From NCBI RefSeq assembly GCF_009363535.1, contig NZ_CP045369.1, forward strand, positions 1,004,501 through 1,068,500: a stretch of 64,000 bases of DNA. The letters are read 5' to 3'. The notes under the pieces are model-generated. The model did no database searches. It saw only the letters and a program-made list of their open reading frames with translations, and was not told the DNA's origin. The DNA is from Microbulbifer sp. THAF38. GTDB lineage: Bacteria > Pseudomonadota > Gammaproteobacteria > Pseudomonadales > Cellvibrionaceae. Positions 37,668 through 42,902 of this stretch are shown one piece after another. Every line of letters starts with the position of its first letter. Positions within the stretch are counted from its first letter, which is position 1. Both the position numbers and the translations under genes were made by a program.

Positions 37668-38828
37668 TCAGGAGGAGGCAGCTGAATCCGACTGGCACTG
37701 CTTGATCAGCCTGCTCAGGCGCCGGCTTTGCATTTTCAAGCTGAATTCCAGCTCTTTAATCTTGCTTTGAAGAGCCAGTGAGCGCCACTTTTCTGCGATT
37801 CGATCCCCGCGGCAGTGGGCGCGCTGTAACTGCAGGTTTTTCCAGTTTTCCAGTGCCCTGGCAAACTGTATGGCCTCGTTCTCCAATAGCTTTAACCAGT
37901 CCTCCCTGTGCGCGCTACCCCCGAGCTTTTCCTTCGCCTGGCTGAACTGCACTGCCAGCTTGGCTTTTTGTATCTGCACCGCAGGAGGAGTTTTCAGATC
38001 GCGGGTAATGCCAACCCAGCTCAGCAGCTTGATCAGCCACTTGGTCGGGTCGTATTGGTACCAGTGGATACCATTGCGGTAGTCGGTCTGAAAGGCGTGG
38101 TGATAGTTGTGGTACCCCTCGCCGAATACAAACAGGTTGAGAAAGAGATTATCCCTTGCACTGATATCGTTTTTATAAGGGCGCTTGCCCCACATGTGGG
38201 CGAGGGAGTTCACCAGAAAAGTAGTGTGATGGTTGACTACGATACGCAGTATTCCCGCGAGCAAAAGCATACCTATCAAGTCTCCGGTGAGGAGCCCCAG
38301 TACGATGGGAATACCCAGATTCATGGAGAGGGTGATGGGGATATAGTGATTGTGTTGCCACATCACGATCTTGTCCCGCTTCAGGTCCTCGACATTTTTG
38401 TAATCGAGATGACTACTCGGGTACTCGTGCATCATCCAGTCGATATGGGAAAACCAAAAGCCGCGCATCGCTGAGTAGGGGTCGCGATCATTGTCGTCAA
38501 TATGCCGGTGGTGTAAGCGGTGGGCGGCACACCAGGTCAGGGTAGAGTTTTGCAGGGCAGCAGCGCTGAATAAGGCAAAGAACAGGCGTAGCGACCAATG
38601 CGCTTTGTAGCTCCTGTGGGACCAGAGCCGGTGATTGCCCGCTGTCACCGAGAGACTGCACAGTGCGGCTAATAGAGCGAAGGCGAGCCACTGGTACCAG
38701 TGATATCCAACCATCAGCCCGTAGATGGGCACGGCGGTCAGGGCCAGGAAGCCTGTACTGGCAAACAGCACTGTGGGGACCCAAAAGCATTTGCGTTTGG
38801 TTGTGGATGTCGACGAAGCGTTATTCAT
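37668..38828 (-). CDS. Acyl-CoA desaturase (delta-9 type), copy 1
   Basis: 386 aa membrane di-iron desaturase introducing cis double bonds into acyl-CoA. Three His boxes: HRLWSHR, HRLHHR and HNYHHAF (HxxxxH, HxxHH, HxxHH), plus four hydrophobic helices (WVPTVLFASTGFLALTAVPI at the start). A C-terminal extension of about 90 residues beyond the desaturase core is charged and helical, probably coiled coil, and is shared with copy 2. Downstream of copy 2 in the same direction, separated by 299 bases holding four 14-bp tandem repeats. Confidence 0.93.
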   Translation of the reverse strand: MNNASSTSTTKRKCFWVPTVLFASTGFLALTAVPIYGLMVGYHWYQWLAFALLAALCSLSVTAGNHRLWSHRSYKAHWSLRLFFALFSAAALQNSTLTWCAAHRLHHRHIDDNDRDPYSAMRGFWFSHIDWMMHEYPSSHLDYKNVEDLKRDKIVMWQHNHYIPITLSMNLGIPIVLGLLTGDLIGMLLLAGILRIVVNHHTTFLVNSLAHMWGKRPYKNDISARDNLFLNLFVFGEGYHNYHHAFQTDYRNGIHWYQYDPTKWLIKLLSWVGITRDLKTPPAVQIQKAKLAVQFSQAKEKLGGSAHREDWLKLLENEAIQFARALENWKNLQLQRAHCRGDRIAEKWRSLALQSKIKELEFSLKMQSRRLSRLIKQCQSDSAASS

Positions 38829-38940
38829 ATTTCGAGCCTGTCTGTGAAACGGTCTCGGGGAAGCCCCCTTATTTGGGTGGCGCAGTTTTTCTTTTAAGGT
38901 ACTTAGCGGTGTATTCCTGGGAGTAGTTCCCGGTTACAAA

Positions 38941-38996
38941 CATAACGGTACTCACATAACGGTACTCACATAACGGTACTTACATAACGGTACTCA
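38941..38996. repeat. Four tandem 14-bp repeats upstream of desaturase copy 1
   Basis: CATAACGGTACTCA occurs four times head to tail; the third copy differs by one base (TTA for TCA at its end). They lie 113-168 bases upstream of the start codon of the minus-strand desaturase. The pitch of 14 does not match the helical turn. They may be a regulator array or a variable-number repeat. Confidence 0.9.
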
Positions 38997-39127: not shown

Positions 39128-40294
39128 CTAGCCTGCCGTTGCGGGGCTCAGGGGTAGCTGGCGCATCATGAGTCGCAGGCGCTCGCTCTGCATTTTTAGC
39201 CTGAATTTCAGCTCGCGAATTTGTGTTTGAATAGTTGCCAGTTTCCATCTTCCCGAGGCGTTATCTGGGGCTATGGCGCGACGCTGGGTCATCAGTGCTT
39301 GCCAGCGATCGAATATTTCACAGAAATCCTGGCGCTCTCGCTGTAATAGTTCGCGCCAGTATTCCTGATCCTGTGTCGCTAGTTTCTCCAGTTGCTGTTC
39401 GGCCCGTTCAATTTCCACCTCCTGAGTTGCTCTATAAATCTGTAGCTTTGTGGCAGCTCTCAGCTGCCAGGTGATGCCGAGCCAGCTGAGGCTTTTTATC
39501 AGCCATTTGGTCGGATCGTAGGCAAACCAACCAACGCCGTTGCGATAGTCCGCGGGAAAGGCATGATGGTAATTGTGATAGCCCTCGCCAAAAGCAAAGA
39601 CATTGATAATAGGGTTGTCCCGAGCCGAAATATCGCCCTTAAATTTTCTTTTGCCCCAGCGGTGCCCGAAAGAGTTGAGGGCAAAAGCGGCATGGTGATT
39701 GACCACCATACGCAACACGCCCGCCAGTAAGAACATGGCGATAATATCGCCGGTAATCAGACCGAGGATCAGGCAGATCGCAAAGTTCATACCGATGGCG
39801 ATCGGCAGATAGTGACGGTGCTGCCACATCACAATTTTGTCCCGCTGAAGGTCTTTGACATTGTCATAGGTTTTCCTGCCTGATGGATATTCGTGCATCA
39901 TCCAATCCAGGTGTGAAAACCAGAGCCCCCGCTTAGAGGAGTGGGGGTCCAGGTCATTATTGTCGGTATAGCGGTGGTGCAGCCGGTGTGCCGAACACCA
40001 GTTCAAAGTGGTGTTTTGTAGGGTTGCAGCGCTGAAAAGGGCAAACCATAAGCGAAGCATCCAGTGGGCTTTGTAAGTTCTGTGGGTCCATAAGCGGTGG
40101 TTACCGGCGGAGATAGAAATGCCGCACAGCCCGGTAATGATTAGGAAGGCGAGCCATTGCTGCCAGGAGTAGCCATATTCGAGCCCATACAGAGGCACGG
40201 CAGTCAACGCAAGGAAGCCCGTGCTGGCGAAGAGAAGTGTAGGTGCCCAATAACGTTTTCTTTTCACCGTATTGCTTGCCGAAACTGTACCCAT
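39128..40294 (-). CDS. Acyl-CoA desaturase (delta-9 type), copy 2
   Basis: About 388 aa from ATG 40294 (frame open to 40321). It is a close paralogue of the downstream gene along the whole length: RKRYWAPTLLFASTGFLALT, HRLWTHR, HRLHHR, HNYHHAF and the same charged C-terminal helical extension. Tandem duplication with both copies intact suggests separate regulation (for example by temperature or lipid state) or different chain-length preference. Confidence 0.92.
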   Translation of the reverse strand: MGTVSASNTVKRKRYWAPTLLFASTGFLALTAVPLYGLEYGYSWQQWLAFLIITGLCGISISAGNHRLWTHRTYKAHWMLRLWFALFSAATLQNTTLNWCSAHRLHHRYTDNNDLDPHSSKRGLWFSHLDWMMHEYPSGRKTYDNVKDLQRDKIVMWQHRHYLPIAIGMNFAICLILGLITGDIIAMFLLAGVLRMVVNHHAAFALNSFGHRWGKRKFKGDISARDNPIINVFAFGEGYHNYHHAFPADYRNGVGWFAYDPTKWLIKSLSWLGITWQLRAATKLQIYRATQEVEIERAEQQLEKLATQDQEYWRELLQRERQDFCEIFDRWQALMTQRRAIAPDNASGRWKLATIQTQIRELKFRLKMQSERLRLMMRQLPLSPATAG

Positions 40295-40473
40295 CCGCTC
40301 TACCCCGGAGATCAGCAGCACATTGAGTATTGGCTGTTACAAAGCCCTTCACCCTAAGGGGGGAGATTTGGCGCTGAATAACATCCCAGTGAAAATTGTG
40401 GCACAAATTTATTGGTTGGCCTGAATAGCGCAAGTTCACAAGTCTCCTTAGGAAAACAAGTGTTGGCACATAG

Positions 40474-40490
40474 TGCCTCTTTTTGGTGCG
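40474..40490 (+). promoter_or_regulatory. NtrC-like enhancer site (candidate)
   Basis: TGCCTCTTTTTGGTGCG resembles the 17-bp NtrC palindrome (TGCACC-N5-GGTGCA): the right half is perfect but for the last base, the left half has two mismatches. It lies about 108 bases upstream of the sigma-54 -24 element, the usual enhancer distance. A single degenerate site is weak evidence. Confidence 0.3.
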
Positions 40491-40580
40491 ATAAATAGGA
40501 TTGTTGGCACTTGTTGGGTCACCTTGCCGGGGTTAACCATGGAGAGAGGGGGCAGCTCTTACTATATCCGGCAAAAAACT

Positions 40581-40596
40581 TGGCACACCGATTGCA
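40581..40596 (+). promoter_or_regulatory. Sigma-54 (RpoN) promoter
   Basis: TGGCACACCGATTGCA fits the consensus TGGCAC-R-N4-TTGCW at every fixed position. The -24 GG is at 40582-40583 and the -12 GC at 40594-40595. The start of transcription is expected near 40606. It is the only perfect match I found in the window, and it points to the structured RNA at 40606-40732, not directly to a start codon. Confidence 0.75.
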
Positions 40597-40605
40597 GTAT
40601 TAGAA

Positions 40606-40732
40606 ATGTACGGGACGCATGACCCGTACTTCGGGGAGTTTGCATGGGGTTATGGCAAACCGTTTCCACTGAGAAACTTCCCGTTTTCTCTCATCATCGC
40701 TGATTACGGCCCCGCACTGCGGGGTCTTTTTT
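40606..40732 (+). ncRNA. Candidate sigma-54-dependent small RNA
   Basis: From the predicted start the transcript would fold as a chain of hairpins. These are GTACGGG / CCCGTAC near its 5' end, GTTTGC (40638-40643) / GCAAAC (40655-40660), GTTTC (40662-40666) / GAAAC (40673-40677), then an unpaired pyrimidine-rich stretch (CCCGTTTTCTCTCATCATCG). It ends in an intrinsic terminator: GCCCCGC (40709-40715) / GCGGGGT (40719-40725) followed by CTTTTTTT. That promoter-to-terminator unit of about 125 bases without a supported reading frame is the layout of a trans-acting small RNA. No known family was recognised. A 72-codon frame across it (40606-40824) runs through the terminator and is judged spurious. 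Confidence 0.65.
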
Positions 40733-40898
40733 TCCTCTCTCTGTTTTCCCTCACGCTCACGTCTGAAAAAAATTTTATTTTTGTGACTCTGTGTGGAATT
40801 CTGATTGGCACTAATGCCTGGTAAATAGACGCCCCATTCGCGCCTAGGTATAAAGGCCCCCTTTGTTTTGCCTGCAATGCCAACGAATCGAGTTAAGC

Positions 40899-42902
40899 GT
40901 GTCCGAACCTCAAAACCCCGTCCCGCCCCATCACCCCTTCCTGCTGTCCACTCCGGAAGAGCTGCACTCCCTGGGTGCACTGGAGCTTGCCCATCAAACT
41001 GGTCGCCTGCAGGGGCTGATGATGGATGTGGATTCTGGCTTGTGGGAATGGCACTTGAACAGCGGTGCCCAGCGCGCCCAGGGGGATATCTGGCACCTGT
41101 TCGCCGACAGTGCCGACCGGGCCCTTCAGGCCCTGTGGTCCGGCACCGAGTTGCACCCGGTTCACTCCGATGAGCGCCACCGTATTCTCTCACTGCGCCA
41201 CCGAATCGCCAGTCAGGGGGGGTATTTCGATCTCGCCTTCCGCGCCTATGACATCACCGGCCAGCTGCGCTGGCTGCGTTTTTGTGGGCGGGCGACCACC
41301 AGTGCTGACGGCAGCGAGGTGATCACCATAGGCACTTGTGCCGACTACAGCGAGGCTCTGTCCCAGCGCTACCTGTCGAGCCTGCCCAGCGAGCGGCCAC
41401 TGCAGGCGCTTTCCGGGGTTGGGGACGGCTTGTGGGAGTGGGATTTACGCGCCGATGAAATGGTTCTCGACGACGCCTGCTGGGGAATTCTCGGTTACGA
41501 GGTGAGCCCCATACGCAGTATCGGGCGCTCTGCCGCCGAGCAGTGGAAGGCGCGCATCCTTACAGAGGATATAGCCAGAGTGGAACAATCCATGCTGGAC
41601 CATGTGCGCGACCGCCTGCCCCTGGATGTGGAGTTCCGCTTGTGGCGCTCTGATGGCAGCCTGGTGTGGGTGCGTTGCCGCGGCAAGGCGCAGCTTGACA
41701 GTCGCGGCCAGCCGGTGCGAGTACTCGGGATTTTGCAGGATGTCAGTGCCAGCCGTGAGACCCAGGCGCGCCTGGAGCGGGAGTTGCACCAGCAGCGTGA
41801 GGAAAATGCCCACCGCGCCGATCTTTTATTCAGCCTGAGCCACGAGTTGCGCACCCCACTCAACGCCATTTTGGGATACAGCCAAATGGTGGAACTGGAT
41901 CAGAGTCTGAACTCCGATCAACGCCAGCGCCTTGGGGAGATCCGCCGAGCGGGTCAACACCTATTGCACCTAGTGGGGGATGTACTGGAGCTCGCCCGTA
42001 TCGATAGTCGGCGGCTCGGCCCCTCAATGGAATCGGTGCGCCCGGTGGAATTGGTGGCCGAATGTAAACGCCTGCTGGAACCTCTGGCAGAGACCCGCCG
42101 GGTCAGCCTGGTTTACGAGCCCCTCGGCTGGGAGTCCGCCTATATCTGCGCGGACCCTGTGCGCTACAAGCAAGTGGTGCTAAACCTTGCCGGCAACGCG
42201 GTGAAATACAATCGGGACAATGGCAGGGTCATTATTAACTTCACTCCCCAGGCGGAGGGATGGCTGCGCCTGAGTATTCTCGATACTGGCAAGGGAATTC
42301 CGCCGGAGCGGCGCAGTGAGGTGTTCGAACCCTTCAATCGGTTGGGAGAAGAGAAGGGCCATATCGAAGGCACCGGTGTAGGTTTGGCAATCGCCAGGCG
42401 CCTCACCGAGGCTATGGGCGGGCGTATCGACTTTGACAGTCAGGAGGGGCAGGGCTCGGTTTTCTGGATTGAGTTCCCCATGATCGACGCGCCCGATGCC
42501 CTGATGAGTTTTTCCGCCCATCCACAGGAACCGCCGAAGCTGCCGGAAGGGCGACTGCTGCTTGTGGATAACCGCCCGGCTGCGGCGGATCAGCTCAGGG
42601 AGATGCTGAAGGAGACTCCCCAGATTCAATGCCTGGTTGCCACCGATGTAGTGGAGGCCATTTTTATCGCGCGAACCCAACGCCCCGATGTGCTGCTGTT
42701 TCACAGTGAGGTACCGGGTATGTCTGCCGCCGACCTACTGTCCATTTTGCAGGAGGATATCGCCACCAGGGCTATGCGCTTTGTATTGGTTGGTGAAAAA
42801 CCGAATGGGGAGAGCTACCTGGTTCTGCCGTCAGAGTTTGATTTTATGCAGTTATCCCGTGTGCTGGCGGAAACCCTTGGGCGGTCTGGGAGGTCGGTTT
42901 AA
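40899..42902 (+). CDS. PAS-PAS hybrid sensor histidine kinase with degenerate receiver
   Basis: 667 aa from GTG 40899 (the frame is open from a TTG at 40863). No membrane segment: two PAS/PAC units (about 35-155 and 165-290), the HisKA box SLSHELRTPLNAI with phospho-His315, and an HATPase domain with NLAGNAVKYN, DTGKGIP and GTGVGLAIARR. The C-terminal 120 residues are receiver-like (RLLLVDNRPAAADQLREML), but the phosphoacceptor Asp position reads His (VLLFHSEVPG), so phosphorelay through it is unlikely. Cytoplasmic sensor; the partner regulator is not adjacent. It follows the sigma-54 RNA candidate by 166 bases. Confidence 0.88.
   Translation: MSEPQNPVPPHHPFLLSTPEELHSLGALELAHQTGRLQGLMMDVDSGLWEWHLNSGAQRAQGDIWHLFADSADRALQALWSGTELHPVHSDERHRILSLRHRIASQGGYFDLAFRAYDITGQLRWLRFCGRATTSADGSEVITIGTCADYSEALSQRYLSSLPSERPLQALSGVGDGLWEWDLRADEMVLDDACWGILGYEVSPIRSIGRSAAEQWKARILTEDIARVEQSMLDHVRDRLPLDVEFRLWRSDGSLVWVRCRGKAQLDSRGQPVRVLGILQDVSASRETQARLERELHQQREENAHRADLLFSLSHELRTPLNAILGYSQMVELDQSLNSDQRQRLGEIRRAGQHLLHLVGDVLELARIDSRRLGPSMESVRPVELVAECKRLLEPLAETRRVSLVYEPLGWESAYICADPVRYKQVVLNLAGNAVKYNRDNGRVIINFTPQAEGWLRLSILDTGKGIPPERRSEVFEPFNRLGEEKGHIEGTGVGLAIARRLTEAMGGRIDFDSQEGQGSVFWIEFPMIDAPDALMSFSAHPQEPPKLPEGRLLLVDNRPAAADQLREMLKETPQIQCLVATDVVEAIFIARTQRPDVLLFHSEVPGMSAADLLSILQEDIATRAMRFVLVGEKPNGESYLVLPSEFDFMQLSRVLAETLGRSGRSV

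What the first reader, a model, noticed from the sequence alone, without database searches (positions are those of the whole stretch)
40581..40732. Sigma-54-driven structured RNA candidate between a desaturase and a histidine kinase
A promoter matching the sigma-54 consensus at all fixed positions points to a stretch of about 125 bases made of three short hairpins, an unpaired pyrimidine-rich segment and a perfect intrinsic terminator. No reading frame in it looks like a protein. This is the architecture of sigma-54-controlled regulatory RNAs such as Qrr, CrcZ or NrsZ, but the sequence does not resemble any of them that I can recall.
Basis: partly seen in the sequence, partly recalled or inferred. 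Interest (0 to 1): 0.75.

Follow-up and report, generated by a model that had tools for sequence, protein, structure and literature searches.

The report
Nitrogen-starvation small RNA of Microbulbifer
A short stretch of DNA between two genes of a marine bacterium very probably encodes a small regulatory RNA, conserved across its genus, that the cell's nitrogen-shortage switch (NtrC with sigma-54) turns on and that probably binds and silences target messages.

Summary
Window 40581-40733 carries a sigma-54 promoter, a two-hairpin RNA, an unpaired pyrimidine-rich segment and an intrinsic terminator. A covariance model finds the RNA in 47 of 48 genomes of the genus, 11 of them not used to build it. 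Its exact 22-base core occurs in 26 stretches of the species-genome collection, all Microbulbifer. The sigma-54 GG-N10-GC element is kept in 47 of 47 loci; hairpin 1 covaries. No Rfam family reaches its cut-off.

New here is the probable activator: two NtrC-like sites 31 bp apart lie upstream. A matrix built only from glnA promoters of the genus singles out that spacing upstream of the sRNA, and the genome encodes NtrB and NtrC.

It works like NrsZ but lacks NrsZ's motif and position. Its resemblance to PrrF rests mostly on the terminator. The invariant segment is complementary to the ribosome-binding site of a CocE/NonD hydrolase mRNA: at least 10 Watson-Crick pairs in a row in 21 of 30 orthologues, against 0 of 106 control starts. 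Repression under nitrogen limitation is the likeliest action. Expression and targets are untested.

The parts
40474..40490 (+). upstream NtrC-like enhancer site 1, TGCCTCTTTTTGGTGCG
   Evidence: Best hit in the window's upstream region of a matrix trained on glnA sites (12.0 of 23.8, p 0.02)
40505..40521 (+). NtrC-like enhancer site 2, TGGCACTTGTTGGGTCA, 31 bp from site 1 (weak)
   Evidence: Best 31-bp pair of this upstream region; pair score only 0.8, reached by 0 of 200 shuffles; the spacing stands out over 43 upstreams
40581..40596 (+). sigma-54 promoter (-24/-12), TGGCAC-N5-TTGCA
   Evidence: Only match in the window; strict form in 45 of 47 genus loci, GG-N10-GC in 47 of 47
40607..40733 (+). 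small RNA, about 127 nt (start inferred from the promoter, end from the terminator)
   Evidence: Covariance model R1, 47 of 48 genus genomes
40608..40629 (+). stem-loop 1
   Evidence: 5 of 8 pairs have changes on both sides in relatives
40632..40683 (+). stem-loop 2, closed by CGGG/CCCG
   Evidence: outer helix 99.5% of cells paired, 4 of 6 pairs invariant
40680..40701 (+). invariant core CCCGTTTTCTCTCATCATCGCT; its single-stranded part 40684-40701 is the probable mRNA-pairing seed
   Evidence: Identical in 45 of 47 genus loci; 26 stretches in the species-genome collection, all Microbulbifer
40708..40733 (+). intrinsic terminator (8-bp stem, T7)
   Evidence: present in 47 of 47 loci (45 by script, 2 read); one pair CG to UA in two
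39128..40321 (-). fatty-acid desaturase gene, divergent neighbour
   Evidence: Pfam PF00487; synteny
40863..42902 (+). PAS hybrid histidine kinase gene, downstream neighbour (start codon uncertain)
   Evidence: Pfam PF08447, PF00512, PF02518; synteny

Best explanation
This is a stand-alone trans-acting small RNA of the genus Microbulbifer. Under nitrogen limitation phosphorylated NtrC binds two tandem sites and drives sigma-54 RNA polymerase at 40581-40596. That yields an RNA of about 127 nt ending at the terminator. Stem-loop 1 protects the 5' end, stem-loop 2 presents the tail, and the unpaired segment UUUUCUCUCAUCAUCGCU base-pairs, probably with Hfq, with ribosome-binding sites. The best-supported target is the mRNA of an apparently secreted CocE/NonD-family (S15-like) hydrolase, whose translation would be blocked. 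Shown by computation: locus, conservation, structure, sigma-54 promoter, NtrC-like sites, complementarity. Inferred: transcription, NtrC binding, Hfq dependence, direction of regulation, identity of targets.
For: R1 hits in 47 of 48 genus genomes, 11 of them outside the 36 loci it was built from. GG-N10-GC in 47 of 47 loci. Cells paired 95.5%, against at most 47.3% with partners slid; covariation score reached by 0 of 500 shuffles. NtrC sites: matrix from 46 sites of 23 glnA promoters; spacing 31 scores 10.9 in the sRNA upstreams, against a mean of -6.1 (sd 3.0) over spacings 17-79, next best -2.6; 40 of 43 upstreams have a 31-bp pair at p<=0.02. NtrC and NtrB are encoded; glnA of this genome has sigma-54 and NtrC-type sites. 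Core complementary to the hydrolase ribosome-binding site: Watson-Crick run >=10 in 21 of 30 orthologues, against a maximum of 8 in 106 control starts; 13 of the 22 orthologues not picked by the pattern search reach 10.
Against: No expression data. In one search two measures are weaker: pairs with changes on both sides (11 of 500 shuffles as high) and further pair types (79 of 500). The window's own NtrC pair is weak (score 0.8), and 3 of 43 upstreams (G006, G067, G062) show no convincing pair (p 0.065-0.14). The target pattern is barely enriched genome-wide (61 matches against 47 for the reversed pattern in 20 genomes), and a 15-base search showed no recurring target in the part of its list printed. 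Duplex energies of target and controls overlap (mean -18.2 against -11.4, best control -20.9), and with G-U pairs 4 of 106 controls also reach 10 (24 of 30 for the target). Eleven of 48 genomes lack the hydrolase and all eleven keep the RNA, so other targets must exist. Orthologues, and many control starts, are related and not independent.
Confidence: 0.82

Rival explanations
1. A sigma-54-dependent RNA under a different enhancer-binding protein (an NtrX-, CbrB- or LuxO-like regulator), with the upstream sites only resembling NtrC sites.
For: Site 2 is weak and its left half often reads GAAC or GTTC instead of GCAC. G006, G067 and G062 lack a clear pair.
Against: Site 1 fits glnA-derived NtrC sites, and the 31-bp spacing is that of the high-scoring glnA pairs in 23 of 30 glnA promoters read (other spacings were not scanned at glnA).
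Confidence: 0.1
2. A distant descendant of the iron-stress RNA PrrF whose Fur promoter was replaced by an NtrC/sigma-54 promoter. Compatible with the best explanation; it concerns descent.
For: PrrF is the best Rfam match at this locus (31.4 bits, E 0.0017). In 11 of 48 genus genomes a PrrF-model match at E<=0.001 lies on this RNA. In 29 of 30 PrrF-model loci read, the best R1 match lies on a PrrF copy, same strand, up to 33.5 bits. In the order search R1 and PrrF matches coincide in 5 genomes (G365, G405, G281, G149, G084). Same layout, with UCUC-UCAUCA segment.
Against: A model without the terminator (R2) finds nothing significant in the same 30 loci: best match on a PrrF RNA body 11.9 bits, E 0.95, like the best of 12 control loci, 11.7 bits; some of its weak matches are in register. 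Scores are far below PrrF's 90-bit cut-off. 37 of 48 genus genomes, G000 included, have no PrrF match at E<=0.001. No Fur-box-like sequence better than 11 of 19. Three sister-genus genomes carry PrrF-like RNAs behind sequence that looks by eye like Fur boxes, elsewhere. GcvB also scores 22.7 bits here.
Confidence: 0.1
3. The core is conserved because it is a protein-binding element (an Hfq or other sponge), not a base-pairing seed.
For: U-rich segment before a terminator; no target found that all genomes share.
Against: A 22-base exact sequence, not a simple repeat; no AAYAAYAA or ANGGA motif; strong complementarity to one ribosome-binding site across the genus.
Confidence: 0.12
4. A leader or attenuator, or a small-protein gene, rather than a trans-acting sRNA.
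For: A 72-aa ORF starts at 40606.
Against: Terminator before the kinase gene in 47 of 47 loci; the ORF start is ACG in L002 (GTG in L003); the core does not vary at third-codon positions; the RNA persists without the desaturase.
Confidence: 0.03

Closest known systems
NrsZ (Pseudomonas aeruginosa nitrogen-regulated sRNA; passages of reviews PMC9308961 and PMC8395346 seen; the original paper is not held)
   Same: Stand-alone sRNA from an RpoN promoter under NtrB/NtrC control, induced by nitrogen limitation; interacts with a 5'UTR that holds a ribosome-binding site
   Different: NrsZ is about 226 nt, processed, lies in the ntrC-PA5126 spacer, carries ACAGGCAG and activates rhlA. Here: about 127 nt, not next to ntrC, no ACAGGCAG, predicted repression
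PrrF (Rfam RF00444)
   Same: Two stem-loops, UCUC-UCAUCA single-stranded segment, terminator; weak covariance-model similarity, carried mostly by the terminator
   Different: 31-38 bits against a 90-bit cut-off; sigma-54/NtrC instead of a Fur promoter
GlnZ (3'UTR of glnA, Enterobacteriaceae; abstract start and passages of PMC9731577 seen)
   Same: sRNA of nitrogen limitation that depends on an NtrC/sigma-54 promoter
   Different: GlnZ is released from glnA mRNA; this has its own promoter and locus
Qrr and CrcZ
   Same: sigma-54-dependent sRNAs
   Different: No Rfam family at cut-off here; no CA-motif repeats; NtrC-like upstream sites rather than LuxO or CbrB control

Membership tests
NtrC/sigma-54-dependent sRNA (functional class) | sigma-54 -24/-12 promoter | tested here: met
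   GG-N10-GC in 47 of 47 genus loci with the RNA
NtrC/sigma-54-dependent sRNA (functional class) | NtrC enhancer sites upstream | tested here: met
   By sequence only: 40 of 43 upstreams with a 31-bp pair at p<=0.02, matrix from glnA alone
NtrC/sigma-54-dependent sRNA (functional class) | induction by nitrogen limitation, lost in rpoN or ntrC mutants | not testable with these tools
   Needs RNA measurement
NrsZ | ACAGGCAG motif | tested here: not met
   Absent from 40580-40735, + strand
NrsZ | location next to ntrC | tested here: not met
   ntrC at about 4.41 Mb and the sRNA at 1.045 Mb of the same contig
NrsZ | about 226 nt, processed | tested here: inconclusive
   Predicted primary length about 127 nt; processing not testable
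PrrF (RF00444) | Rfam gathering score 90 bits | tested here: not met
   31.4 bits in the window; 33.9-38.5 bits in 11 of 48 genus genomes
PrrF (RF00444) | sequence and structure similarity of the RNA body without the terminator | tested here: not met
   R2 on 30 PrrF loci: best on the RNA body 11.9 bits, E 0.95; control best 11.7 bits
PrrF (RF00444) | Fur box at the promoter | tested here: not met
   Best 11 of 19 to a recalled Fur consensus in 40321-40658
Qrr | match to the Rfam family | tested here: not met
   No family at gathering score, none of this name at E<=10; that Rfam holds a Qrr model is recalled
Qrr | LuxO control | not tested
   No LuxO matrix was run
CrcZ/CrcY | repeated CA motifs (AAYAAYAA, recalled) | tested here: not met
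   None in the RNA

The most novel reading that the evidence does not exclude
A PrrF-type iron-stress RNA, or a new RNA with the same seed logic, was rewired in the ancestor of Microbulbifer from Fur to NtrC/sigma-54, came to lie beside a desaturase gene, and became a genus-wide nitrogen-starvation regulator of secreted hydrolases, ectoine synthesis and amine oxidation.
Probability: 0.1. Interest if true: 0.75.

Novelty: new member of a known kind. Interest (0 to 1): 0.52.

Why it matters
NrsZ is the NtrC/RpoN-controlled stand-alone sRNA named in the two reviews whose passages I saw; my impression that few others are known is recalled. This adds what appears to be an unrelated family in Microbulbifer. 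A full-text search for Microbulbifer with small RNA listed 5 papers, none on a Microbulbifer sRNA by title or abstract start. It gives a testable promoter, a seed and a named candidate target, and its apparent restriction to one genus suits a study of how new sRNAs emerge.

Tried and rejected
Conserved micro-ORF: rejected. The ATGGCA in the loop of stem-loop 2 opens frames of differing length and stop (read by eye).

Homologues outside the genus: R1 matched 72 of 381 non-genus genomes of the order at E<=0.01, none above 36.4 bits. The 11 best were read: four copies of a 3'-end RNA of another genus, one PrrF, the rest gene ends or terminators. The other matches were not read. Five weak second matches inside the genus (29-32 bits) were read and look like gene ends with terminators.

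R1 lands on PrrF copies in 29 of 30 PrrF-model loci (in L128 its best match lies outside the listed copies), but the terminator-free model R2 does not reach significance there and does no better than in 12 control loci. Odds left unchanged.

Functional tie to the desaturase: weakened. G006 and G067 have no desaturase at the locus yet keep RNA, promoter and terminator.

Family-level synteny: stretches next to suhB of nine non-genus genomes of the family. Two (G164, G291) end within about 0.6 kb of suhB and say nothing. Of the other seven, six have a kinase-like gene (30-33% identical), G346 none; no desaturase match and no strict sigma-54 promoter in any.

Target search 1 (15-base wobble complement, 48 genomes): no gene seen to recur in the printed part of the list; the loci read gave no shared mRNA start. 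Target search 2 (20 genomes): 46 of 61 matches were read. The hydrolase recurs in 8 genomes, ectC in 4, an FAD oxidoreductase in 2. Only the hydrolase was followed genus-wide: 30 of 37 genomes with an orthologue were read.

Rows dropped: 4 of 47 genomes (G019, G068, G025, G017), because the extraction missed them, and the decayed second copy of G004. 7 of 30 glnA promoters were not used (31-bp pair under the cut), and glnA of 18 of 48 genomes was not read. The 31-bp spacing was imposed when picking glnA sites. In one search, 76 of 182 control starts were left out because their loci were fetched for complementarity or hold the target gene. One search missed G025 and G017, which I counted.

Papers: passages only of PMC9308961, PMC8395346, PMC9731577, PMC10117139 (its sRNA NcS25 shows no sigma-54 motif) and PMC8092317 (an ammonium-responsive E. 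coli sRNA; only its reference list matched). All others: listings.

Full report
What is there. Window 40581-40596 reads TGGCACACCGATTGCA, the only TGGCAC-N5-TTGCW match in 64 kb (shuffles mean 0.15). Taking -12 as the C of TTGC, transcription should start near 40607. The stretch 40600-40740 folds to -50.8 kcal/mol against -37.5 for shuffles (z -3.48). It contains SL1, a long SL2, an open pyrimidine-rich segment and a terminator. Upstream is a divergent fatty-acid desaturase, downstream a PAS hybrid histidine kinase.

Conservation. BLAST of the region matches 36 of 58 genomes searched, own included: 36 of 37 of the genus and 0 of 21 others. A covariance model R1, built from 36 loci, matches 47 of 48 genus genomes, and 46 of 46 that are at least 90% complete and at most 5% contaminated; the miss is an 80%-complete assembly. 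Eleven of the 47 were not used to build it. Outside the genus 72 of 381 genomes of the order give weak matches, none above 36.4 bits; the 11 best were read and are not this RNA. The 22-base core is found in 26 stretches of the species-genome collection, all titled Microbulbifer. The region has no match in the plasmid collection, and no Rfam family reaches its cut-off in the window.

Promoter and structure. The strict form TGGCAY-N5-TTGCW is present in 45 of 47 loci, GG-N10-GC in 47 of 47 (G019 and G068 are the exceptions to the strict form). The bases around it differ between species. In a structure of 26 pairs, 95.5% of cells pair, against 34-47% when partners are slid. The covariation score and the number of double-changed cells exceed all 500 shuffles; the number of double-changed pairs is reached by 11 and that of further pair types by 79. 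Five of 8 pairs of SL1 and one terminator pair change on both sides; three of the four pairs of the inner helix of SL2 are unpaired in 6-7 of 35 rows as aligned, where single-sequence folds show a helix formed with other letters. CCCGUUUUCUCUCAUCAUCGCU is identical in 45 of 47; G006 and G067 differ.

Evolution of the locus. Of 36 genomes looked at, 34 have both desaturase and kinase beside the RNA; G015 is cut by a contig end and G006 lacks the desaturase. In one search G062 and G064 have both and G067 lacks the desaturase. The remaining eight were not examined. G004 carries a second, decaying copy (promoter kept, terminator lost) upstream of a second desaturase gene, which suggests that desaturase and RNA were once duplicated together. 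In seven informative non-genus genomes of the family the stretch beside suhB holds a kinase-like gene in six, and no desaturase or strict sigma-54 promoter. The RNA thus appears to have arisen, or arrived, in the ancestor of the genus (inference).

Activator. Upstream regions share TGC-N5-TTTTGGTGCR and, 31 bp on, a weaker palindromic site. In this genome glnA has a strict sigma-54 promoter and two NtrC-type sites 31 bp apart. I trained a matrix on 46 sites of 23 of the 30 glnA promoters read and scanned 43 sRNA upstreams. Spacing 31 scored 10.9, against -6.1 (sd 3.0) over spacings 17-79, and 40 of 43 upstreams held a pair at p<=0.02 against 200 Markov shuffles each; G006, G067 and G062 did not. 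The window's own pair is among the weaker (0.8; 0 of 200 shuffles as high). In some species the pair sits some 20-75 bp further upstream with the spacing unchanged. ntrB and ntrC lie downstream of glnA (NCBIfam 388 and 755 bits). The position labels of the single-site column printed are shifted by my script; the pair positions are right.

Mode of action. The open invariant segment suggests base pairing. A search for its complement just before ATG in 20 genomes gave 61 matches against 47 for the reversed pattern, so there is no broad excess. One gene recurred in 8 genomes: a CocE/NonD-family protein (PF02129 and PF08530; TIGR00976) with a signal-peptide-like start (by eye). Its orthologue was found in 37 of 48 genomes and 30 starts were read. 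The Watson-Crick run to the seed is at least 10 in 21 of 30, and in 13 of the 22 not selected by the pattern (4 of these 13 are close relatives of selected ones). In 106 control starts with a Shine-Dalgarno-like motif the longest is 8, also in the 11 with GAGAG. Counting G-U pairs, 24 of 30 against 4 of 106 reach 10; duplex energies overlap. Different species use different overlapping parts of the seed (GAUGAGAGAAAAC, GAGAGAAAACG, GCGAUGAUGAGAGA). Pairing would cover the Shine-Dalgarno sequence, hence repression (inferred). ectC (ectoine synthase, 4 of 20) and an FAD oxidoreductase (2 of 20) are weaker candidates. All eleven genomes without the hydrolase keep the RNA, so it cannot be the only target.

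Comparison. The control logic is that of NrsZ (review passages), but NrsZ's motif and position are absent. Layout and sequence come nearest to PrrF, far below its cut-off, with no Fur box. R1 lands on PrrF copies in 29 of 30 PrrF-model loci and coincides with PrrF matches in five genomes of the order search, but a model without the terminator does not find them significantly (best on the RNA body 11.9 bits; 11.7 in control loci). The resemblance is therefore mostly the terminator, with a faint in-register remainder. I file it as a new sRNA family of the known NtrC/sigma-54 kind.

Limits. No transcript data; Hfq dependence and direction of regulation are inferred; orthologues are not independent samples; the control starts come from loci fetched for other reasons and include many orthologues of the same genes.

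Noticed in passing
window 37668-38828 and 39128-40321 (-): Two tandem fatty-acid desaturase genes, 57% identical; in G004 one of the pair is broken and a second, decaying sRNA copy sits beside the other.
   Followed up: partly
window 38940-38996: About four copies of a 14-bp tandem repeat (ACATAACGGTACTC) between the two desaturase genes.
   Followed up: no
L231-L260 (glnA loci): The 30 glnA loci read have a sigma-54 promoter; in 23 of them two NtrC-type sites 31 bp apart pass my score cut.
   Followed up: yes
L179 (G000 C1:3488693) and L176 (G000 C1:848570): Strict sigma-54 promoters before a gene that looks by eye like an outer-membrane beta-barrel protein and before one that looks like an efflux-type membrane-fusion protein.
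   Followed up: no
L173 (G023 C10): A 15-base perfect complement of the sRNA core lies 36 bases before the start of a gene that looks by eye like glycerol kinase.
   Followed up: no
L169, L170, L171 (G103, G346, G291): PrrF-like RNAs below the Rfam cut-off, behind sequence that looks by eye like Fur boxes, in sister genera.
   Followed up: partly
L307 (G034 C25): Hydrolase-like start with the complementary ribosome-binding site but an early stop; apparently a broken copy.
   Followed up: no
L083, L084, L088, L090 (genus g34): Four similar sequences with a terminator, apparently at the 3' end of a gene, in another genus of the order.
   Followed up: no
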